Shown here: positions 3,976 through 16,502 of the stretch, in pieces
How the letters are laid out: each line of letters begins with the position of its first letter
How positions within the stretch are numbered: position 1 is the first letter of the stretch
The notes under the pieces: generated by a model
The model's input: the letters and a program-made list of their open reading frames with translations, nothing else
Databases searched by the model: none
What the model was told of the DNA's origin: nothing
Made by a program: the position numbers and the translations under genes
Assembly (NCBI RefSeq): GCF_900105065.1
Contig: NZ_LT629749.1
Coordinates: forward strand, 4,030,001 to 4,094,000
Reading direction: 5' to 3'
DNA from: Friedmanniella luteola
Lineage (GTDB): Bacteria > Actinomycetota > Actinomycetes > Propionibacteriales > Propionibacteriaceae
Length of the DNA: 64,000 nucleotides

Positions 3976-5358
3976 TCAGCGCGCGGGGCCGGCGGTGAGC
4001 CCACCGGTGGCGAGCGCGAGGGTCCGCTCGGCGAGGTCGCTGATCCGGGAGTTGTCGAAGCCGAACAGCGCGGAGCGGGTCCGGTCGTGCAGCGGCTCCA
4101 CCAGTCGGGCCGGCAGCCCGGCGGTGCCGCCGAGGATCCCGGCGACCGAGCCGACGGTCGCGCCGTTGGAGTCGGTGTCCCAGCCGCTCATCACGGTCTT
4201 GCCGAGGGCCGCCATGTAGTCGCCCTCGCCCCAGAGCAGGCCGGCCACCACGACGGCGGCGTTGTTGATGGTGTGCACCCAGCTGTAGTGGCCGTACGAC
4301 CGGCGGATCTGCTCCAGGGCGGCCTCCCAGGTGAGCCCGTCCGCGTGCAGGCGCAGGACGTGGCCGATCGCCTCGGCCAGCCGGGACCGCGGGGGCACGA
4401 CCCCCAGCGCGACCGTGATCGCCTCGCGAGCCGAGCTCGCGGTGAAGGCGGCGGAGACCAGGGCGGCGGCCCACATCTCCCCGTAGATCCCGTTGCCGAC
4501 GTGGGACAGGGCCGCGTCCTGGTAGGACAGGGCGGCGGCGGCCCAGGGGTCGCCCGGGAAGACGTAGCCGAAGACGTCGCCGCGGATCTGCGCACCGATC
4601 CACTCGCGGTAGGGGTTGCGGTGGGTCGCCACGTCCGGCGGGCGGAGGCCGTTCGTCAGGTTGACGTAGGCCGCCCGCTCGGCGGTGTACACCTGCTTCA
4701 GCGGGAACAGCATCGTCCAGGCCTCGCCGACGTGCTCCGGACGCAGCGAGGTCCCCCAGGTCTCGAGCAGGTGCAGCGCGAGGATCGGGTAGTCGATGTC
4801 GTCGTCGCGGGCCGAGCCGTCGACGTTGCCGCGCGTGGTGTCGGGCCAGTTGTCCCGCAGCTCGAACCCGGCCGGCATCGGGTCCAGCACCGGGACGTAG
4901 TCGTCGAGCGGGTAGGCGCCAGCACGCTCCAGGTAGTCCCGGATGTGCTCGACGGTCCAGTGGGAGCCCATCTCGACCGGCTTGCCCACGTTGCAGCCGG
5001 CGATCCGGCCGAGCCACGCGGCGTGCACCTGGTCCGTCAGTCGGGCGGGCGGCGCGGCGGAGCCAGCGGGGACCCTCTCCAGGCTGGCGCGGATCGCCGC
5101 CAGGCCGTCGGGCTCCTCGTACGCCCAGTCTCGCCGCCGCTCGAGGGTGGTCATGCCGTCGACGAGGGCCAGCACGGCCTCCCGGTCGTCCGGGTCGGTG
5201 GCGTTGGCCTGCTCGACCACCGCGTCGACGTCGTAGCCGCTCTCGCGGCGTTGGAGGACCTCGTCGTGGAGCAGGTCGGTGGGTCGCAGGGCGTCGAAGC
5301 CGCTGTTCCGGTACGCCTCCCCGAGCTCGGGGCTGGCGCTGCGGGTGTCGCTGGGCAT
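3976..5358 (-). CDS. ADP-ribosylglycohydrolase (DraG/ARH-like) family protein with N-terminal extension
   Basis: A 460-residue protein. The family's paired metal-binding motifs are present: SARDDDIDYP near residue 190 (equivalent to the usual T-D-D-T) and SGWDTDSNGATVGS near residue 390 (the D-x-D-S/T site). The core therefore looks catalytically complete and should hydrolyse ADP-ribosyl or related N-/O-glycosidic bonds using two magnesium ions in the cytoplasm. About 110 residues precede the core and are not part of the minimal fold. I chose the ATG at 5358 because GGAGAC lies six bases upstream; a GTG at 5394 is also open. No partner overlaps it. A second, different ADP-ribosylglycohydrolase occurs at 15000-16502. 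The substrate cannot be predicted. Confidence 0.85.
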   Translation of the reverse strand: MPSDTRSASPELGEAYRNSGFDALRPTDLLHDEVLQRRESGYDVDAVVEQANATDPDDREAVLALVDGMTTLERRRDWAYEEPDGLAAIRASLERVPAGSAAPPARLTDQVHAAWLGRIAGCNVGKPVEMGSHWTVEHIRDYLERAGAYPLDDYVPVLDPMPAGFELRDNWPDTTRGNVDGSARDDDIDYPILALHLLETWGTSLRPEHVGEAWTMLFPLKQVYTAERAAYVNLTNGLRPPDVATHRNPYREWIGAQIRGDVFGYVFPGDPWAAAALSYQDAALSHVGNGIYGEMWAAALVSAAFTASSAREAITVALGVVPPRSRLAEAIGHVLRLHADGLTWEAALEQIRRSYGHYSWVHTINNAAVVVAGLLWGEGDYMAALGKTVMSGWDTDSNGATVGSVAGILGGTAGLPARLVEPLHDRTRSALFGFDNSRISDLAERTLALATGGLTAGPAR

Positions 5359-5457
5359 GCAGGTCTCCTGGACGACGAGCCGGGTGGGCAGCACGATCGT
5401 CCACCGCGGGAGCCGTGGCTGTGAAGGGGTCGGCGGCCGCCGACGGTCCTGGGGCGC

Positions 5458-8200: not shown

Positions 8201-8380
8201 CCCTCACCGTAGGAGCGCCGGGCACGGCGGGCAAGCCCCGGTCGGACCGCCGGTCCCGTGCACCAGCGTGCGGATCGACGAGGTGACTGCACCACGCCGG
8301 TTCACACGATCTGCGTCTTCCCAAGCCCGTCGCCGGTGCGGCACGATCGACCCGTCGCCGAGGCCCGGGGGGGAACTGTC

Positions 8381-10765
8381 GTGGAGCTGTCGTCTGCCGT
8401 CGTCGAGCTGGGTCGGGGTCCGTTGACGGCCGGGGCGGCCGCCCCCGTGACCGCACCTCCGCCCACCACCGCCCCAGCGGGCGCGACCCCGTCCGAGACG
8501 TCCGGACCGCCGGTCGCCTCGGGCGGACCGGCCGCGGCCGACGCCGGCTGGTCGCCGCTGTTCGGCTCACCCGCGCTGCCCGGGGACCTCGTCGCGGTCG
8601 CGGTGTCCGGGCCGGACGTCTACGTCGGGGGCAACTTCATCTACGGCATGGCCGGGATGGCGAACGACAGCCACCTGCGGATCGCCCACTGGGACGGCCA
8701 CGGCTGGCACCCGCTGGGCGCCGGGCTGGACGGGGCGGTGCGCGCGATCGCCGTCGTCGGCACCGACGTCTACGTCGGTGGCGACTTCACCGTGGCCGGC
8801 GGGACGGTCGTCAGCCCGCACCTGGCGCGCTGGGACGGCCGGGCCTGGTCCGCGGTCCCGGGCAGCCCCACCGACCCCGACCGCAGCTACGGCACCACCG
8901 TCCGCGCGCTGGCCAGCGACGGGACCACGCTCTACGTCGGCGGGACCTTCACCCGGGCCGGGGACGTCGACTGCCACAGCCTGGCGGCGCTCGACCTCGC
9001 CACCGGCCGCTGGTCCGAGCCCGGTGGCGGGGTCCGCTCCAGCTACTCCACCGAGCCGTCCGAGGTGCGAGCCCTGGCGCTGCGCGGGACGGAGCTGTTC
9101 GTGGGCGGCTCCTTCGACCGGGCCGGCCAGACGGAGGTCTCCTCGTTCGCCTCCCTGGACCCGGCCAGCGGGACCTGGACCGCGTACGGCACCGGCGTCC
9201 GGGACGACGACCTGCAGGGGTTCGTCAACGCGCTCGCCGTCGACGACGCGACCGGCGCGGTCCACCTCGGCGGCCGCTTCACCCGGGCGGGCGACGTGCA
9301 CGCCTGGAACCTGGCCGTGCTGGGCGCGGACGGCTTCGCCTCGCTCGGCGACGTCGGCTCCTACGGCGGCTCCAACGCCGAGGTCGCCGCGCTCGCCGTC
9401 ACCGGCAGCGGCCTCTACCTGGGCGGGTCCTTCACCACCGTCGGCAACGCCGCGACCCAGCACCTCGCGGTCTGGGACGGCACCGCCTGGGCGGGCGTCG
9501 GCGACGGCGTCGACAACGTCGTCCGCGCGCTGGCCGCCACCCCGGACGGCGGCGTCGTCGTCCTCGGCGACTTCGTCTTCTCCGGCGCGCTGCGGGTGGT
9601 GCACGGCGCCGTCTGGTCGGGGACCGGGTGGCGGACGTTCGGCCAGGGCGTCAACGCCGACCCCTACGGGGGCGGCACGGTCGCCGCGCTCGTGCCGGAC
9701 GGCGACGCCGTCTACGTCGGCGGCCTGTTCGACCAGGCCGGCCAGCTGCCCGTCCGCTCGGTCGCGCGCTGGGACGGGCAGGGCTGGGACGCCCTGGCCG
9801 GCGGGGTGACGGCCACGATCAGCCACGGCCAGGTGTTCGCGATGACCTCCCTCGGCGGCGACCTCTACGCGACCGGCGCGTTCCAGACCGCGGGCGGCAG
9901 GGTGATGAACAACATCGCCCGCTGGGACGGCTCGGCGTGGCTCCCGCTGGGCGACGGCCTCGACGACGCCGGGTACGCGCTGACGGTGCTCGGCGGGAAG
10001 CTCTACGTCGGCGGGACGTTCAACCTCGCCGGCCGGGTGCGGGCGGACCACCTGGCCTGCTGGGACCCGGCGACGTCGTCCTGGTCGGCGGTCGGGAACA
10101 GCCCCCGCTACGACGACGAGGTCCGGGCGCTGGCGGCGATCGACGACCGCTACCTGGTGGTCGGCGGCACCTTCCAGCGCTTCTTCGACCAGAACACGAC
10201 CGTCGTGGACGGCCTGTGGGGGATGGTCCTCTTCGACACCGCCGCGGAGCACACCGACGACCTGCTCACCGGCTACCGGCTGCTGGAGGGCACGAGCCGC
10301 TACGGCGGACCCGGCTGGGTGCACGCGCTGCACGTCCTCGGCGGCGACCTCTACGTCGGCGGCTGGTTCGACGTCGCCGGCATCATGGCGCTGGGCGACC
10401 AGCCCTCGCCCGGCTTCCCCGCCGCGAACCTCGCCGTCTGGCACTTCGCCGGGGACGGCTCGTGGGAGACCTGCGGCGGCGGGACGGACCACCAGGTGAC
10501 GGCGCTGACCACCACGGCCGGCGTCCTCGGCGTGGGCGGCTGGTTCAGCCGGGCCGGCGCCGTCCCCGCGGCGCGGGTCGCCACCTTCGACCCGGCGGCC
10601 CGGAGCTGGAGCGTGCTCGGCAGCGGGTTGAGCGACGGGGAGCGCGGCGCCAGCTGGGCGCTGGCCCTCGCCCCCAGCGGGTCCGACGGACTCTGGGTCG
10701 GCGGCCAGTTCCCGGTCGCCGGCGGGGCGCCGAGCGACAACCTGGCGCAGTGGACGGGCAGCTAG
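8381..10765 (+). CDS. Large beta-propeller repeat protein (Rax2/kelch-like), 14 repeats
   Basis: A 794-residue protein built almost entirely of tandem repeats of about 50-60 residues. Each contains a strand-turn unit of the form LYVGGTFTRAG followed by a tryptophan motif (LARWDGxxWSAVG). I count 14 such units, at about 8616, 8772, 8934, 9099, 9267, 9417, 9564, 9714, 9867, 10005, 10158, 10350, 10530 and 10698. Fourteen blades would fit two seven-bladed propellers. The pattern resembles Rax2 'cortical marker' and related kelch-like bacterial proteins, which are non-enzymatic scaffolds. I chose the GTG at 8381 after a G-rich run; the frame is open upstream to 8258. No signal peptide is seen; the N-terminus is a Thr/Ala/Pro-rich linker. 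Confidence 0.75.
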   Translation: MELSSAVVELGRGPLTAGAAAPVTAPPPTTAPAGATPSETSGPPVASGGPAAADAGWSPLFGSPALPGDLVAVAVSGPDVYVGGNFIYGMAGMANDSHLRIAHWDGHGWHPLGAGLDGAVRAIAVVGTDVYVGGDFTVAGGTVVSPHLARWDGRAWSAVPGSPTDPDRSYGTTVRALASDGTTLYVGGTFTRAGDVDCHSLAALDLATGRWSEPGGGVRSSYSTEPSEVRALALRGTELFVGGSFDRAGQTEVSSFASLDPASGTWTAYGTGVRDDDLQGFVNALAVDDATGAVHLGGRFTRAGDVHAWNLAVLGADGFASLGDVGSYGGSNAEVAALAVTGSGLYLGGSFTTVGNAATQHLAVWDGTAWAGVGDGVDNVVRALAATPDGGVVVLGDFVFSGALRVVHGAVWSGTGWRTFGQGVNADPYGGGTVAALVPDGDAVYVGGLFDQAGQLPVRSVARWDGQGWDALAGGVTATISHGQVFAMTSLGGDLYATGAFQTAGGRVMNNIARWDGSAWLPLGDGLDDAGYALTVLGGKLYVGGTFNLAGRVRADHLACWDPATSSWSAVGNSPRYDDEVRALAAIDDRYLVVGGTFQRFFDQNTTVVDGLWGMVLFDTAAEHTDDLLTGYRLLEGTSRYGGPGWVHALHVLGGDLYVGGWFDVAGIMALGDQPSPGFPAANLAVWHFAGDGSWETCGGGTDHQVTALTTTAGVLGVGGWFSRAGAVPAARVATFDPAARSWSVLGSGLSDGERGASWALALAPSGSDGLWVGGQFPVAGGAPSDNLAQWTGS

Positions 10766-10767
10766 GC

Positions 10768-10812
10768 GTCCCCCCGGGCGGGGACTCGGACACTGCCCGC
10801 ACAGTTCCGAGT
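10768..10812. terminator. Tandem hairpins after the beta-propeller gene
   Basis: A 6-bp stem (GTCCCC/GGGGAC, 10768-10785) overlaps a second 7-bp stem (ACTCGGA/TCCGAGT, 10784-10812) directly after the stop codon. They are mutually exclusive at two bases. A plausible but weak terminator. Confidence 0.45.
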
Positions 10813-10853
10813 GGTCCTGCCGCGGACGGCGGGCCAGCGGGAGGGTGGGGCTC

Positions 10854-13646
10854 ATGTCCTCCCTGTCGAGTCCTGCCCGCGGACGGCTGATCCTGGCGGT
10901 CCTGCTCGCTCTCACCACGGCCCTGCTGCTGGTCGCCCCACCGGCCACCGGGGCCCCGCCGGCACCCCGAGCGGGGCGGGCCTGGGAGGTGGAACGGACC
11001 GCCGGCGGCTGGACGGTGACCTGGCGGGCCGACGGACCGGTCCCGGTGCGCGACGACGTGCCCGTGCTGCTGGCGGACGGCCGCCGGGTGGGCGTGGCCC
11101 GCGCCGCGGCCGGCGGGCGCACCTACACCGCGACCACCACCGACGCGCGGGTGCGGCTGGCGACGTCGGTGACCCTGGGCTGGGCCAGCGACGGGGGCGC
11201 CGCGGCCGGTCGCCGGGCCGCGGGGGCGGGGGCAGGCGGCTGGGGCGCCCCGACCGGGCCGGTGCTGGCCGACGACCCAGCGGCGACCGGGCGCTACGCC
11301 GTGCGCACCCGCGACTACGACCTCGGCGACCGGGCCCTGGCGCTGGCCGCGCTGGGCGGGAAGAAGACCGAGCTGCGGGGACGGGTGTACCTGCCCGTGG
11401 GCGCGTCCGGGAGGCGCCCGGTCGTGCTGTTCCTGCACGGGATGCACAGCGCCTGCTACGGCGGGCGGTTCGGTCCTGACCTCAGCGTGTGGCCGTGCCC
11501 GCGGGGCGAGAAGCCGGTGCCGAACCACCTCGGCTACGCGGCGATGGCGCGCTCCCTGGCGAGCCGCGGCTACGTCGTCGCCTCCCTCAGCGCCAACGGC
11601 GTCAACGTCTACAGCAACGCCGACCTCGACGCGGGCCAGCGGGCGCGCGGGGAGCTGGTGCTGGCGTCGCTGGACCTGGTCCGCCGCGGCGGCGGGGGCA
11701 GCGGCGCGCTGGCGTTCCTCCGCGGCCGCGTCGACCTGAACCGCGTCGGGCTGATGGGGCACTCGCGCGGCGGCGAGGGCGTGGCCCGGGCCGCGCTGAT
11801 GAACACCCAGCGCGCGAAGCCGTACGGCATCGTCGGGCTGTTCCTCATCGCCCCCACCGACTTCGCCCGGCTGACCGTGCCCGGGGTCTCGACCGGGGTC
11901 CTGCTGCCCTACTGCGACGGCGACGTCGCCGACCTGCAGGGCCAGCACTACCTGGACGACACCCGCCGCGCGGCCGGTGGCGACCGCAGCGTCAAGACCG
12001 GCGTGCTGATGCTGGGGGCCAACCACAACTACTTCAACACCGAGTGGTCGCCGGGCTCGGTCTCCGAGGGCACGGACGACTCCCAGCCCGACGACCCGGC
12101 GTCGCCGTGCGACGCCCGGCACCCGGACCGGCTGACGGCGGCGGAGCAGCGGGCCGCCGGCCGCGCCTACCTGACCGGCTTCTTCCGCACCGCCGTCGGC
12201 CGCGAGACCCGCTTCCTGCCGCTCTTCGACGGCACCGGCGCCCGGGCGAGGTCCGCCGGCCGGGCCGTGGTCCGGACCACCTACACCGCGCCCGCGCCCG
12301 ACCGGGTCGAGGTGGCCCCGCTCAACCGGGTGCTGCCCGTCGGGCTGACGGCGTCGGGCGGCGCCCGGCTCACCCTGTGCGCGGGGCTGCAGCCGGTCAA
12401 CCCCGAGCCGGGCGAGGTGCCCGACCCGGTGCCGACGACGGCGCGCGGGCGGGCGGCCTGCAGTCGCGAGCTGCTGACGGCGTCGTCCTGGTCGGCGTCC
12501 CCGCTGGTCGGGAACCCGCCCGGGACCACCGTCGGCCACCTGCGCTGGACGGCGACAGGTGCAGTCCGGCTCCCGCTGGCCGCCGGCCGCCGGGACGTCC
12601 GCCGCGCCGACGCGCTCCGCCTGCTGGCGGCCCCTGATCCGGGCGTCGCCGGCACCCAGGACCTGACGGTCCGGGTGGTCGACGGCCGCGGCCGGTCGGT
12701 CCGGGTCCGGGTGGGCGCTGTGAGCGACGCCCTGAAGCCGCTGCCGGGTGCCGGGCGCGACCTGCCCCGGACGGAGCTGCGGACCGTGCGGGTCCCGGTC
12801 GGGAAGCTCCGCGGCCTGGACCTGCGCGACGTCCGCGCGGTCGAGCTGGTCACCGACCGGAAGCCACGGGGGGCGGTCTACGTCAGCGACGTGGCCTTCA
12901 CCCGCTCGACCCGCGGGACGTCGAAGCCCGTGCGGCTGCCGTCGCTGCGGCTGGTCGGAGCCCCCCGGGTCGCGGAGGGCCCCACCGGCGTCACGACGGC
13001 CGCCCGGTTCACCGCGGTGCTGTCCCGGGCCAGCGACCGCGACGTGACGGTCGAGTGGAGCGCGTTCCGCGACAGCGGGGAGCTCATCCCGCCGCCCGCC
13101 GAGTCGGTCGTCATCCCCCGCCGGACCGGCCGGGTGCGGATCCCGGCCGGCACCACGAAGCTCACCGTCAGGGTCCCGGTGCTCGGCAACGACCGGGACG
13201 GCTTCAACCAGGTCGCGCTGGCGGGCCTGTCGTCCCCCGCGGGCGCGGTGCTCGGGGCGAACACCGGCCAGGCGACCGTCCTCGACGACGACCCGGCCCC
13301 GACGCTCCGGGTCGGCGCCGCGACCGCCGACGAGGGCGCCGGCGTGCTGCGGTTCCCGCTGACCCTGTCGGCGGCGAGCGACGCGGGCGTCGCGGTCGAC
13401 GCGGTGGTCCTGCCCGGGACGGCGGTGCGCGGGTCCGACTGGCAGGTCGAGGGCGAGCCCGGCGAGCCGGCCCGGACCTTCGGCTTCGTCGACGTCGGCC
13501 GCGCGACGGGGGTGATCGAGGTGCCCCTGGTCGACGACCGGGTCGCCGAGCCGACCGAGACGTTCCGGCTGCAGCTCGGGGAGGTGTTCAACGCCACCGT
13601 GGTCGGGCCGCGGGCGGTGGCCGGGACGATCCGGGACGACGACTGA
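10854..13646 (+). CDS. Secreted alpha/beta hydrolase with C-terminal Calx-beta-like domains
   Basis: A 930-residue exported protein. The ATG at 10854 follows GGGAGG by nine bases, and residues 1-35 are a signal peptide with core LILAVLLALTTALLLVA. An alpha/beta-hydrolase domain spans about residues 150-460: VVLFLHGMHS (oxyanion loop), VGLMGHSRGGEGVARA (nucleophile Ser in GHSRG), a candidate acid in LLPYCDGDVADLQGQ, and GANHNYFN as the likely catalytic His. The middle region is beta-rich. The C-terminal 250 residues contain two Calx-beta-type segments with Asp-rich turns (ATVLDDDPAPTLRVG; GTIRDDD), which usually bind calcium in extracellular proteins. It is likely a calcium-stabilised secreted esterase/lipase-type enzyme; substrate unknown. 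Confidence 0.8.
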   Translation: MSSLSSPARGRLILAVLLALTTALLLVAPPATGAPPAPRAGRAWEVERTAGGWTVTWRADGPVPVRDDVPVLLADGRRVGVARAAAGGRTYTATTTDARVRLATSVTLGWASDGGAAAGRRAAGAGAGGWGAPTGPVLADDPAATGRYAVRTRDYDLGDRALALAALGGKKTELRGRVYLPVGASGRRPVVLFLHGMHSACYGGRFGPDLSVWPCPRGEKPVPNHLGYAAMARSLASRGYVVASLSANGVNVYSNADLDAGQRARGELVLASLDLVRRGGGGSGALAFLRGRVDLNRVGLMGHSRGGEGVARAALMNTQRAKPYGIVGLFLIAPTDFARLTVPGVSTGVLLPYCDGDVADLQGQHYLDDTRRAAGGDRSVKTGVLMLGANHNYFNTEWSPGSVSEGTDDSQPDDPASPCDARHPDRLTAAEQRAAGRAYLTGFFRTAVGRETRFLPLFDGTGARARSAGRAVVRTTYTAPAPDRVEVAPLNRVLPVGLTASGGARLTLCAGLQPVNPEPGEVPDPVPTTARGRAACSRELLTASSWSASPLVGNPPGTTVGHLRWTATGAVRLPLAAGRRDVRRADALRLLAAPDPGVAGTQDLTVRVVDGRGRSVRVRVGAVSDALKPLPGAGRDLPRTELRTVRVPVGKLRGLDLRDVRAVELVTDRKPRGAVYVSDVAFTRSTRGTSKPVRLPSLRLVGAPRVAEGPTGVTTAARFTAVLSRASDRDVTVEWSAFRDSGELIPPPAESVVIPRRTGRVRIPAGTTKLTVRVPVLGNDRDGFNQVALAGLSSPAGAVLGANTGQATVLDDDPAPTLRVGAATADEGAGVLRFPLTLSAASDAGVAVDAVVLPGTAVRGSDWQVEGEPGEPARTFGFVDVGRATGVIEVPLVDDRVAEPTETFRLQLGEVFNATVVGPRAVAGTIRDDD

Positions 13647-13742: not shown

Positions 13743-13783
13743 GTTCTCGGAAATTTGTCAGGAGCACAAGATAGCGTTCTCGG
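13743..13783 (+). promoter_or_regulatory. Low-GC promoter/operator region of the YbjN-Nudix-ARG operon
   Basis: This short stretch is far less GC-rich than its surroundings. It holds a direct repeat GTTCTCGG at 13743-13750 and 13776-13783 (33 bases apart, about three helical turns). Between the copies lies an interrupted palindrome TTGT-N7-ACAA (13755-13769). It sits 30 bases upstream of the start codon of the operon. The Nudix-winged-helix protein of this operon is an obvious candidate to bind here, but that is inference. Confidence 0.45.
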
Positions 13784-13813: not shown

Positions 13814-14260
13814 ATGGACGTTCGCACCAGCACCCAGCGCCGGTGGCTCCGCAGCCACCTCTCCACCCTGCTCGCCACCATCACGGGCGAGCCCGTCACC
13901 GCCGACGGCGACGGCGACTTCCCCGTCCGCGGCCTGACGTCGCAGGCGTGGGTGCGGCCCCGGACGGGCGACCCCTGGGGCGTCCAGGTCTTCGCCACCG
14001 CCGCCCGCGACGTCCCCGCTCGCGTCGCCGTCCTCCGGGAGATCAACGAGCAGAACGCGGCCCACCTGGGCACCCGCGTCTACTGGGTCGAGGGGCTGGT
14101 GGTGGTCGACTGCTTCGTGTTCGCCGACGCCGTGACCGAGGAGACCCTGACGGCGGTGGTCGGCCGGGTGCTGCACCTGGCCGACAGCATCGGCCCGGTG
14201 CTCACCGCACTGCACGGTGGAACCACCTTCCACAGCGCCAGCAGCGCGTCCGCCGCCTGA
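13814..14260 (+). CDS. YbjN / type III secretion chaperone-like domain protein
   Basis: A 148-residue soluble protein whose ATG is preceded by CGAGGAGGTCCTC, a strong ribosome site. The sequence has the alternating beta/alpha pattern of YbjN-like (TY-chaperone) proteins: WVRPRTGDPWGVQVFA, then a helix rich in Ala/Arg/Glu (VAVLREINEQNAAH), then VYWVEGLVVVDCFVFAD and a C-terminal amphipathic helix (ETLTAVVGRVLHLADSI). Members of this fold are small binding proteins without catalytic residues. It is the first gene of an operon; the Nudix-type gene begins five bases after its stop. By association it may bind or deliver a protein connected with ADP-ribose metabolism. The assignment to the fold is moderate, the role unknown. 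Confidence 0.65.
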   Translation: MDVRTSTQRRWLRSHLSTLLATITGEPVTADGDGDFPVRGLTSQAWVRPRTGDPWGVQVFATAARDVPARVAVLREINEQNAAHLGTRVYWVEGLVVVDCFVFADAVTEETLTAVVGRVLHLADSIGPVLTALHGGTTFHSASSASAA

Positions 14261-14265
14261 TCCCG

Positions 14266-15003
14266 GTGAGCTACACCTCGGCGTTCCCGCCGGTCTACGT
14301 CACCGTCGACGTCGTGCTGCTCACCCTCCGCGCAGACCGCCTGCACGTGCTGATGGTGGAGCGCGGTTCCGAGCCCTGGCGGGGGTGGCTGGCTCTGCCA
14401 GGCGGGTTCGTCCGCCAGGACGAGGACCTGCCCGAGGCCGCCCGGCGGGAGCTCCGCGAGGAGACCGGGCTGGCCGTCGAGCCCGTCCATCTCGAGCAGC
14501 TGGGTACCTTCGGTCGGCCGGACCGCGACCCGCGGGCACGCACGGTCGCGGTCGCCCACCTGGCCGTCCTGCCCGCCCTGCCCGAGCCCGTGGCCGGCAC
14601 CGACGCCGCCGGGGCCAGCTGGCAGCCGGTCGAGGCGGTGCTCGACCGCGAGCTGCCCTTCGACCACCACGACATCCTGCTCGCCGGGGTCGAACGGGCC
14701 CGGGGCAAGCTCGAGTACACAACGCTGGCCACGGCGTTCGCCGGCCCGACCTTCACCATCGCCGAGCTGCGGCACGTCTACGAGACGGTCTGGGGACGGC
14801 CGCTGGACCCGGGCAACTTCCACCGCAAGGTCGTCGGTGCACCCGGGTTCGTCGAGCGGGCGCCCGGCGAGCGCAGCAGCGGCCGCGGCCGTCCGGCCGC
14901 GGTCTACCGCGCCGGGACCGCCACCCTGCTCAACCCGCCCCTGTGGCGCGGCGAGCCCGCCACGCCCCCGTCCCCGCTCGCCGACCGAGAGGCCACGCCA
15001 TGA
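14266..15003 (+). CDS. NrtR-like Nudix hydrolase / winged-helix regulator
   Basis: A 245-residue protein. Residues about 46-68 form an intact Nudix box: GFVRQDEDLPEAARRELREE followed by TGL satisfies GX5EX7REUXEEXGU, so metal-dependent hydrolysis of ADP-ribose or another nucleoside diphosphate is possible. After the Nudix domain, residues about 160-225 (FTIAELRHVYETVWG and NFHRKVV) match the winged-helix DNA-binding domain of the NrtR family, which senses ADP-ribose to control NAD genes. The GTG at 14266 is the only reasonable start; the ribosome site is weak, suggesting coupling to the gene before it. Its stop overlaps the next start as ATGA. It could be a repressor of this operon, an enzyme or both; no NAD-biosynthesis gene is nearby. 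Confidence 0.85.
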   Translation: MSYTSAFPPVYVTVDVVLLTLRADRLHVLMVERGSEPWRGWLALPGGFVRQDEDLPEAARRELREETGLAVEPVHLEQLGTFGRPDRDPRARTVAVAHLAVLPALPEPVAGTDAAGASWQPVEAVLDRELPFDHHDILLAGVERARGKLEYTTLATAFAGPTFTIAELRHVYETVWGRPLDPGNFHRKVVGAPGFVERAPGERSSGRGRPAAVYRAGTATLLNPPLWRGEPATPPSPLADREATP

Positions 15004-16502
15004 CGCACTTCTCCCCAGGATCGTCCCTGACCGCCGCCCAGTCCGACCGGGCCGTCGGCGTCCTGCTCGCCCTGGCGTGCGGCGACGCCCTCGGCGCCGG
15101 CTACGAGTTCGGCCCGCCGCTGGCCGCCGACGTCGAGATCCAGATGCACGGCGGCGGCTCGTTCGGCTGGGCGCCCGGGGAGTGGACCGACGACACCTCG
15201 ATGGCCGTGGCCCTCGCCGAGGTGAGCGCTGCCGGCGCCGATCTCCGCTCGTCCGCCGCCCAGGACCGCGTCGCCAGGCGCTGGGTCGGCTGGGGTCGCG
15301 AGGCGAAGGACGTCGGCGTCCAGACCCGCGCGGTCTTCACGGCGGCGTCCGCCGGCCGGTCCGGTCCACCGTCGGCCGCCGACCTGCGCGCCGCCGCGCA
15401 GGAGCTGCACCGGCGAACCGGGCGCACGGGTGGGAACGGCTCGCTGATGCGGACGGCGCCCGTCGCCCTGGCCTTCCTGCACGACGCCGACGCCCTCGTC
15501 GAGGCCGCCATGGCGCTGAGCGCCCTCACCCACGCCGATCCCGAGGCGGGCGAGGCCTGCGTGCTGTGGTGCCTGGCCATCCGACATGCGGTCGTGCACG
15601 GCACCGTCGACGGGCTGCGCCTCGGCCTGGACCGGCTGCCGGCGGAGCGTCGAGCGGCGTGGGCCGAGCGGCTGGACGTGGCGGAGGAGCGTGAGCCGTC
15701 GTCGTTCGCGCACAACGGCTGGGTCGTCGAGGCGCTGCAGGGGGCCTGGTCGGCGATCAGCCGGACGCCGGTGCCGAAGGGGTCTGACGGCAGCCTGCAG
15801 CCCGCCGACCACCTGCGGCTCTCCCTGGAAGCCGCCGTGCGCGGCGGCCGGGACACCGACACCGTGGCGGCGATCGCCGGCGCTTGCCTCGGGGCCACCT
15901 GGGGCGCATCCGCCGTGCCGTCGGCCTGGCGTCGCCTCCTGCACGGCTGGCCGGGACTGCGAGCCCGCGACCTGGTCCGGCTCGGCGTCCTCAGCGCCCA
16001 GCAGGGGCGGCCCGACCGCGCCGGCTGGCCGAGCGACGCCGTGGTCGACTACGGGCGCTGGGCCGAGCGGCACGTGCTCGTGCGGCACCCGCACGACCCG
16101 CAGGTCTGGCTGAGCGGCGTCGGCGCGCTCGAGCGGCTGCCGGCCGGTGTCGACGCGGTCGTCTCCCTGTGCCGGCTGGGTGCCGACGAGGTGCCGGCCA
16201 CCGGAGTTGCTGCAGGCGACCACGTCGAGATCTGGCTCATCGACTCCTCCGACCCGGCCAAGAACCCGCACCTCACCTTCGTGCTGCACGACGCCGCAGC
16301 CGCCGTCCGGCAGCTGCGGTCCGAGGGCAGGACCGTGCTGTTGCACTGCGTCCAGGCGCAGAGCCGGACCCCGACCGTCGCGGCCCTGTACGGGGCGCTG
16401 CTGACCGGGCGGCCCGCAGCGGACTGCCTGGACGACGTGCTGCGGGTGCTGCCGCGGGCGCACCCCAACGCGGCGCTGCGGCAGGCGCTGGAGGATCACT
16501 GA
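15000..16502 (+). CDS. ADP-ribosylglycohydrolase fused to a dual-specificity/tyrosine-type phosphatase
   Basis: A 500-residue two-domain enzyme. The first roughly 340 residues are an ADP-ribosylglycohydrolase with both metal motifs: GEWTDDTSMAVAL near residue 60 and GGRDTDTVAAIAGACLGA near 282. The last roughly 140 residues carry a cysteine-phosphatase P-loop, LLHCVQAQSRTPTVAA, with the CX5R signature (Cys near 450, Arg near 456). Such a fusion suggests that removal of phosphate and cleavage of an ADP-ribosyl bond act on the same substrate, for example a phosphorylated ADP-ribose derivative or a phosphorylated, ADP-ribosylated macromolecule. The start ATG overlaps the stop of the NrtR-like gene by four bases, so the two are translationally coupled. 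The window's other ARG lacks the phosphatase domain. Confidence 0.9.
   Translation: MTHFSPGSSLTAAQSDRAVGVLLALACGDALGAGYEFGPPLAADVEIQMHGGGSFGWAPGEWTDDTSMAVALAEVSAAGADLRSSAAQDRVARRWVGWGREAKDVGVQTRAVFTAASAGRSGPPSAADLRAAAQELHRRTGRTGGNGSLMRTAPVALAFLHDADALVEAAMALSALTHADPEAGEACVLWCLAIRHAVVHGTVDGLRLGLDRLPAERRAAWAERLDVAEEREPSSFAHNGWVVEALQGAWSAISRTPVPKGSDGSLQPADHLRLSLEAAVRGGRDTDTVAAIAGACLGATWGASAVPSAWRRLLHGWPGLRARDLVRLGVLSAQQGRPDRAGWPSDAVVDYGRWAERHVLVRHPHDPQVWLSGVGALERLPAGVDAVVSLCRLGADEVPATGVAAGDHVEIWLIDSSDPAKNPHLTFVLHDAAAAVRQLRSEGRTVLLHCVQAQSRTPTVAALYGALLTGRPAADCLDDVLRVLPRAHPNAALRQALEDH

What the first reader, a model, noticed from the sequence alone, without database searches (positions are those of the whole stretch)
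13814..16502. YbjN-like / NrtR-like / ADP-ribosylglycohydrolase-phosphatase operon: candidate ADP-ribose signalling or repair module
Seen: a 5-base gap and a 4-base overlap couple the three genes. The Nudix box is perfect and joined to a winged helix; the third protein has both ARG metal motifs plus a CX5R phosphatase loop. Known: NrtR proteins bind ADP-ribose; ARG enzymes cleave ADP-ribosyl bonds. Inference: the operon handles a phosphorylated ADP-ribose compound (dephosphorylate, release ADP-ribose, sense or hydrolyse it), with the YbjN protein as client-binding factor. No NAD-biosynthesis gene is next to it, so this is not the textbook NrtR setting.
Basis: partly seen in the sequence, partly recalled or inferred. 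Interest (0 to 1): 0.7.

Follow-up and report, generated by a model that had tools for sequence, protein, structure and literature searches.

The report
Inducible ADP-ribose removal operon
Three coupled bacterial genes look like a switchable kit that strips ADP-ribose tags from the cell's own molecules, matching a kit already predicted in print, with an unusual sensor that may destroy its own trigger molecule.

Summary
In detail: TY-Chap1/YbjN (13814-14260), an NrtR-type Nudix-winged-helix regulator (14266-15003) and a fused ADP-ribosylglycohydrolase/dual-specificity phosphatase (ARG-DSP, 15000-16502), joined by a 5-base gap and a 4-base overlap. The set is not new in kind: PMC9503650 (2022; section 3.8) predicts ARG-centred systems with Nudix-HTH regulator, rhodanese/DSP-type phosphatase and TY-Chap chaperones, as defence against foreign ADP-ribosylation. 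New here: the same three-gene layout in two further same-genus genomes; a predicted operator at 13755-13769; and a regulator unlike the usual one. In 80 named loci the NrtR found beside 43 lies on the opposite strand and none has an intact Nudix box; the window's belongs to a separate branch (8 of 10 ARG-linked members intact), most of whose fetched members face an SPFH/Band-7 gene. Substrate, induction and phage defence are untested.

The parts
13755..13769 (+). predicted NrtR operator TTGTC-AGGAG-CACAA (imperfect inverted repeat); extended conserved form to 13775
   Evidence: one mismatch to TTGTC-N5-GACAA; 9 of 10 ARG-linked promoters of this NrtR branch have at most one mismatch to the inner 8 positions, the tenth, L248, does not; extended pattern has one exact site in the 4.7-Mb genome
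13802..13808 (+). Shine-Dalgarno-like GAGGAGG just before the first ATG
   Evidence: read from the sequence; not tested
13814..14260 (+). TY-Chap1 / YbjN-like predicted peptide-binding chaperone, 148 aa
   Evidence: PF22551 E 2.7e-22, YbjN E 1.2e-7
14266..15003 (+). NrtR-type regulator: Nudix domain with intact box plus NrtR winged helix, 245 aa, GTG start
   Evidence: PDB kin 3gz5 and 5bs6 by sequence; box and proline
15000..15926 (+). ADP-ribosylglycohydrolase (ARH/DraG-like) domain of the 500-aa protein, residues about 1-309
   Evidence: PF03747 E 9.8e-52 over residues 20-308; invariant ligand residues; model pLDDT 94.5 matches Thermus ARG 2cwc, the 6drh toxin/immunity pair, DraG and ARH3
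16065..16499 (+). dual-specificity-type phosphatase domain with D415 and H449-C450-x5-R456-T457

Best explanation
The operon is a repressible, ADP-ribose-inducible eraser module. At rest the NrtR-type protein sits on 13755-13769 and holds the operon down (inferred). When cell molecules become ADP-ribosylated, most likely by an ADP-ribosyltransferase from outside (a phage's or a rival's), free ADP-ribose or a relative of it binds the Nudix domain and the repressor lets go (inferred from studied NrtRs). The products then work together: the ARG domain cuts ADP-ribose from the modified molecule (family chemistry; substrate unknown), the fused DSP domain takes phosphate from the product, the remnant or the client (fold and catalytic residues shown; substrate inferred), and TY-Chap1 holds the modified client (inferred). 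The intact Nudix box suggests that this regulator can also split ADP-ribose and so clear its own inducer and reset the switch (inferred).
For: Domains and catalytic residues present. Linkage conserved: same TY-Chap1-NrtR-ARG order in G018 and G088; NrtR of the same branch divergent from an adjacent ARG in six further family genomes (L007, L008, L009, L010, L015, L027), ARG being DSP-fused in five of them and not in L027; an NrtR homologue beside 43 of 80 named ARG loci. Two well-separated NrtR branches (split 100/99) are joined to ARG-DSP. Shared palindrome. Patchy spread (47 of 296 class genomes at E 1e-60, 39 of 147 family genomes at E 1e-20) and absence of KptA and DarT here fit an eraser aimed at a foreign writer, as argued in PMC9503650. 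HCx5R kept in 77 of 79 full-length named homologues.
Against: No experiment. The scanned neighbours are sugar, redox and secreted-type genes, not defence genes; PADLOC gives only one weak Nudix hit (PDC-S07, 20.1 bits). Other ADP-ribosyltransferase families were not searched in this genome. TY-Chap1 is in only 6 of 80 named loci, and 37 of 80 have none of NrtR, ARPP, TY-Chap1 or TY-Chap3 by my profiles within the distances searched, some because contigs end. The Nudix box is not intact in 2 of 10 ARG-linked regulators of this branch, and one of the ten (L248) lacks the palindrome. Patchy distribution also fits plain gene loss.
Confidence: 0.6

Rival explanations
1. One reading: the module processes a phosphorylated ADP-ribose metabolite such as ADP-ribose-1''-phosphate from RNA 2'-phosphate removal; the DSP dephosphorylates it and NrtR senses or splits the ADP-ribose.
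For: Phosphatase fused to an ADP-ribose enzyme beside a Nudix protein. S. coelicolor ARH-like SCO5809 acts on phosphate-linked ADP-ribose of RNA ends (PMC11833690, section read).
Against: No KptA in the genome; ARG/KptA overlap 8 of 296 genomes against 8.3 expected, fused form 2 against 3.9. A free ADP-ribose-phosphate would leave the ARG domain nothing to cut unless it cuts the phosphate bond (inference).
Confidence: 0.12
2. A housekeeping regulatory cycle like DraT-DraG: the ARG removes ADP-ribose from a specific endogenous protein modified by an endogenous transferase, and the DSP reverses phosphorylation of the same client.
For: ARG domain is kin of DraG and Tri1; the DSP domain resembles protein phosphatases.
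Against: Patchy within one genus: 3 of the 15 same-genus genomes listed. No transferase among the neighbours scanned. Far below the DraG and Tri1 equivalog cut-offs (82.5 of 337.05 and 99.3 of 490 bits).
Confidence: 0.15
3. A small-molecule salvage enzyme: ARG and DSP act on a ribosylated or phosphorylated sugar or nucleoside, and NrtR acts as a metabolite sensor, as AraR does for arabinose.
For: NrtR kin BtAraR is a sugar regulator (PMC4666351, start of abstract seen in a search listing; PDB kin 5bs6); sugar-type genes and another ARG gene (3976-5394) lie nearby.
Against: The flanking genes are not conserved with the operon: none of the eight tested is found in 13 kb around the G088 copy. ARPP and TY-Chap partners in other loci fit the published macromolecular reading.
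Confidence: 0.1

Closest known systems
ARG-centred host conflict systems predicted in PMC9503650 (2022), section 3.8
   Same: ARG coupled to a phosphatase of the rhodanese-phosphatase superfamily, Nudix-HTH regulator, TY-Chap1 chaperone; no transferase alongside; actinobacteria named as hosts.
   Different: Here all three genes run the same way with NrtR in the middle; the regulator is from a branch with mostly intact Nudix boxes; no ARPP. Figure 7 of the paper could not be seen, so whether this exact layout is drawn there is unknown.
NrtR family (MsNrtR, PMC6800001, passages seen)
   Same: Nudix domain plus NrtR winged helix; palindrome in the regulated promoter.
   Different: No NAD-synthesis gene adjacent; Nudix box intact, whereas MsNrtR's is altered and no hydrolase activity was detected; palindrome TTGTC-N5-GACAA-like instead of GTTTTCGA-N7-TCGAAAAC.
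DraG, Tri1 and ARH3 ADP-ribosylhydrolases
   Same: ARG fold and ligand residues.
   Different: C-terminal DSP domain; below the DraG and Tri1 equivalog cut-offs.
Small dual-specificity phosphatases (DUSP28, Tk-PTP)
   Same: Fold, conserved D and HCx5R loop.
   Different: Fused to ARG in bacteria; under Pfam's DSPc cut-off.

Membership tests
ARG-centred conflict system (PMC9503650) | ARG gene without a coupled ART or sirtuin | tested here: met
   no such Pfam match in the neighbouring genes scanned between 3976 and 21536
ARG-centred conflict system (PMC9503650) | coupled phosphatase of the rhodanese-phosphatase superfamily | tested here: met
ARG-centred conflict system (PMC9503650) | Nudix- or WYL-HTH one-component regulator | tested here: met
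ARG-centred conflict system (PMC9503650) | predicted chaperone (TY-Chap, SseB, vWA) | tested here: met
   TY-Chap1 E 2.7e-22
ARG-centred conflict system (PMC9503650) | protects against foreign ADP-ribosylation | not testable with these tools
   needs bench work; a prediction in the paper too
NrtR | Nudix plus NrtR winged helix | tested here: met
   NUDIX 3.7e-20, NrtR_WHD 9.3e-13; below the cut-off of the NCBIfam NtrR equivalog (119.5 of 400 bits)
NrtR | controls NAD metabolism genes | tested here: inconclusive
   no NAD gene adjacent; a distant regulon was not excluded
NrtR | conserved palindrome in the regulated promoter | tested here: met
   9 of 10 ARG-linked promoters of the branch; binding itself not tested
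NrtR | ADP-ribose as ligand | not testable with these tools
   inferred from kin
DraG / Tri1 equivalogs | equivalog score cut-off | tested here: not met
   82.5 of 337.05 and 99.3 of 490 bits
DarT- or KptA-coupled ADP-ribose system | DarT or KptA in the genome | tested here: not met
   none in G000 at E 0.001
Dual-specificity phosphatase fold | conserved D, C-x5-R loop, DSP fold | tested here: met

The most novel reading that the evidence does not exclude
The window's regulator is both repressor and active ADP-ribose hydrolase: it senses the product that the neighbouring eraser releases and destroys it, so the operon switches itself off when the damage is gone. This regulator was recruited from an SPFH/Band-7-linked NrtR branch, independently of the decayed-box NrtRs that serve the same ARG-DSP enzymes in other actinobacteria.
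Probability: 0.3. Interest if true: 0.6.

Novelty: new member of a known kind. Interest (0 to 1): 0.38.

Why it matters
Host systems that undo foreign ADP-ribosylation with an ARG-phosphatase enzyme are predicted, and I saw no test of one in my literature searches (listings capped). This locus is a compact three-gene version with a defined, checkable operator and a sensor whose catalytic motif is complete, so the main predictions (DNA binding, release by ADP-ribose, eraser activity, phosphatase substrate) can be tested with three purified proteins.

Tried and rejected
ADP-ribose-1''-phosphate from KptA: set aside as the main reading after (ARG 47 of 296 genomes, KptA 52, overlap 8, expected 8.3; DarT 20, overlap 2, expected 3.2; fused ARG-DSP 22, overlap with KptA 2, expected 3.9, with DarT 1, expected 1.5). 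The 22 fused genomes are those whose best match reached about residue 470 or beyond, by my reading of the table. I take the genomes to be the same draw because the handles agree. KptA and DarT are not all possible writers.

Operator caveats. An automatic palindrome search over the promoters found nothing useful; the motif was then read by eye from nine ARG-linked promoters, so their fit is not independent. Of 26 loci not used to find it, 25 have at most 2 mismatches to TTGTC-N5-GACAA against 5.8% of control segments, but 17 of the rows come from one close clade, and their own site is slightly different (TTGTCGTCA-N3-TGACGATAA exactly in 15 of 26). The one failure, L248 (G391), is itself ARG-linked. 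The motif does not hold for the distant NrtRs: 3 of 43 regions with at most 1 mismatch against 5.4% of controls; there the commonest 5-base dyad, chosen after the fact among many, is TTAGC-N10-GCTAA, 8 of 43 against 0.2 expected, in loci that are partly close kin. The general pattern TYGTCA-N3-TGACRA with one mismatch is not specific in this genome (37 sites per strand against 3 for the pattern read backwards).

Defence-island context: not found next to the operon. The own genome has two Band_7 genes; their link to this regulator was not tested. Empty-site comparison in G114 and G443: only the DsbA-like neighbour was recovered in 3.7 kb, so inconclusive.

Selection. Alignment A1 (22 rows) was drawn from 27 loci picked for HCx5R; I dropped L005, L006, L015, L037 and L044. 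The count not so picked is 77 of 79 (exceptions L136 and L113; L131 is too short). NrtR beside 43 of 80 loci: all on the strand opposite to ARG, 41 upstream (divergent) and 2 downstream (L084, L111). Only the best 80 of 560 confirmed relatives were kept, and several loci end at contig ends, so absences are upper bounds. Only 30 NrtR loci were fetched of those matched in 93 genomes.

Papers. PMC9503650: passages and section 3.8 whole, not its figures. PMC6800001: passages. PMC11833690: outline with abstract, passages and one results section. Others only as search listings. No paper with both NrtR and SPFH was seen in one search, of which 10 of 41 papers were listed.
Full report
What is there. 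Three genes on the + strand, 13814-14260, 14266-15003 and 15000-16502, separated by 5 bases and overlapping by 4. A GAGGAGG stands just before the first ATG. Gene GC is 0.74-0.76 and third-position GC 0.93-0.96, in a window of GC 0.755. The window is bases 4030001-4094000 of a 4.72-Mb single-contig genome.

The proteins. Gene 1 is TY-Chap1 (PF22551, E 2.7e-22) and YbjN (1.2e-7). Gene 2 is NUDIX (3.7e-20) plus NrtR winged helix (9.3e-13). Gene 3 is an ADP-ribosylglycohydrolase over residues 20-308 (9.8e-52). By sequence, gene 2 is kin to solved NrtR/AraR-type structures (3gz5, 5bs6) and gene 3 to Tri1-type 6dre, Thermus ARG, DraG and ARH3. The last 145 residues of gene 3 reach no Pfam cut-off (DSPc E 1.6e-4, 21.9 of 33.5 bits), but a profile of 17 homologous C-termini finds protein tyrosine and dual-specificity phosphatases (best E 1.2e-10), and a confident model (pLDDT 95.1) matches DUSP28 and other DUSPs (best Foldseek E 1.2e-7). 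In 22 aligned full-length homologues E36, D64, D65, T66, D285, D287 (ARG ligands; roles recalled) and D415, H449, C450, R456, T457 (phosphatase; role of D415 as general acid recalled) are invariant. Those rows had been chosen for HCx5R; a count not so chosen is 77 of 79. Both enzyme parts therefore look active.

Conservation. The ARG protein has matches at E <= 1e-60 in 47 of 296 class genomes and at E <= 1e-20 in 39 of 147 family genomes, including 3 of the 15 same-genus genomes listed; the own genome is counted in each. The same three-gene order is in G018 (71, 86 and 83% identity) and G088 (48, 72 and 71%); none of the eight flanking genes tested is found in 13 kb around the G088 copy. G188 has TY-Chap1-ARG without a recognised NrtR. 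G213 and G196 have an opposite-strand NrtR-like match, then TY-Chap1 and ARG (L039, L054). In six family genomes an NrtR of the window's kind lies divergently beside ARG; in one of them, G110 (L027), the ARG has no DSP domain. Among 80 named genome loci an NrtR homologue lies near 43, always on the other strand, 41 upstream and 2 downstream. Within about 3.5 kb an ARPP gene is in 20, TY-Chap1 in 6, and 37 have none of NrtR, ARPP, TY-Chap1 or TY-Chap3. The names ARPP-1 and TY-Chap3/TY-Chap1 were confirmed by Pfam on two proteins each.

Prior art. Section 3.8 of PMC9503650 (read whole) describes this kind of system: ARG without a transferase, Nudix- or WYL-HTH regulators in over 42%, phosphatases in a little over 55%, most often of the rhodanese-phosphatase superfamily, TY-Chap1-3, SseB or vWA chaperones, and ARPP, in actinobacteria among others. 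Its authors predict defence against viral ADP-ribosylation with induction through ADP-ribose or nucleoside. The finding is therefore a new member of a predicted kind. I saw no experimental test of such an operon in my searches (listings capped).

What differs: the regulator. A tree of 78 NrtR-type proteins has a branch (100/99) between the 35 rows of the window's kind and the 43 NrtRs of the named ARG loci; one of the latter, L084, is a long row next to that branch. None of the 43 keeps the full Nudix motif (for example GTFLRERETLADAVLRSLREKAGI). In the window's branch 8 of 10 ARG-linked and 24 of 24 SPFH-linked proteins keep it, the one other row (L239) does not; of those that keep it, 6 of 8 and 24 of 24 have the proline 16 residues on. 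Published MsNrtR has an altered box and no detected hydrolase activity (PMC6800001). Homologues of the window's regulator at E <= 1e-40 occur in 93 of 245 genomes of the order; of the 30 loci fetched, 24 have an SPFH/Band-7 gene upstream on the opposite strand (tblastn with one member, 57-81% identity to it in the other 23 loci; that member is Band_7 at E 3.9e-12). The ARG-linked members form two groups of five (86/86 and 86/59) beside the SPFH-linked group; root and direction of change are not settled, so 'recruited from the SPFH branch' is a guess.

Operator. Nine of the ten ARG-linked promoters of this branch hold TGTC-N5-GACA with at most one mismatch, a level reached by 0.5-7.8% of same-length control segments; G088 and G095 have the full TTGTC-N5-GACAA. 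The tenth, L248 (G391), has at best three mismatches near its NrtR. The longer form TTGTC-N5-SACAAGWTAGC has one exact match in the genome, this one, and one other with two mismatches. In 26 loci not used to find it, 25 have at most two mismatches against 5.8% of control segments, and 15 share TTGTCGTCA-N3-TGACGATAA exactly. The motif is not enriched beside the distant NrtRs. Two NrtR branches, apparently with different sites, thus serve the same enzyme: this repeated pairing is the best evidence that ADP-ribose-type sensing belongs to its function (inference).

Mechanism. Shown: gene set, coupling, domains, catalytic residues, conserved linkage, shared palindrome. Inferred: repression at the palindrome, release by ADP-ribose, ARG cutting of ADP-ribosylated molecules, phosphate removal by the DSP domain, client holding by TY-Chap1, and inducer clearance by the intact Nudix domain. 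It is not excluded, since S. coelicolor ARH-like SCO5809 acts on phosphate-linked ADP-ribose of RNA ends (PMC11833690).

Verdict. Real, with well-conserved linkage and a coherent function, but in its main lines already predicted. The new points are the site, the intact-box regulator branch and its SPFH connection.

Noticed in passing
L223-L238 and L240-L247 (24 loci), e.g. L226:2210-3298 +: Close kin of the window's NrtR face an SPFH/Band-7 gene on the opposite strand (24 of 30 fetched loci) across a conserved palindrome (TTGTCGTCA-N3-TGACGATAA exactly in 15 of 26 loci). An NrtR-controlled SPFH gene is unexplained and was not seen in print in one search.
   Followed up: partly
3976-5394 (- strand): A second ADP-ribosylglycohydrolase gene (PF03747 E 2.6e-43) lies 8.4 kb from the operon; Pfam shows no phosphatase domain in it.
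   Followed up: no
L142:4947-6398 and L143:1720-3330: Two of 64 viral-contig ARG loci encode an ARG followed by HCHAGxSRT, i.e. apparent ARG-DSP fusions on contigs classed as viral; host contamination not excluded. No TY-Chap1 or NrtR match was found in the 64 loci by tblastn at E 0.001.
   Followed up: no
43 loci among L061-L140 with opposite-strand NrtR: Regions beside the decayed-box NrtRs hold a dyad TTAGC-N10-GCTAA in 8 of 43, against 0.2 expected (chosen after the fact): a candidate site of the usual ARG-linked NrtR.
   Followed up: partly
L097: One full-length ARG-DSP protein (51% identity) on a contig assigned to a Myxococcales MAG: horizontal transfer or mis-binning.
   Followed up: no
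8258-13646: An 835-aa beta-propeller-like protein (Rax2, E 8.6e-34) and a 933-aa putative hydrolase lie upstream; in G018 the operon stands directly beside the zinc-dehydrogenase-like gene instead, so about 7 kb differ between the two genomes.
   Followed up: partly
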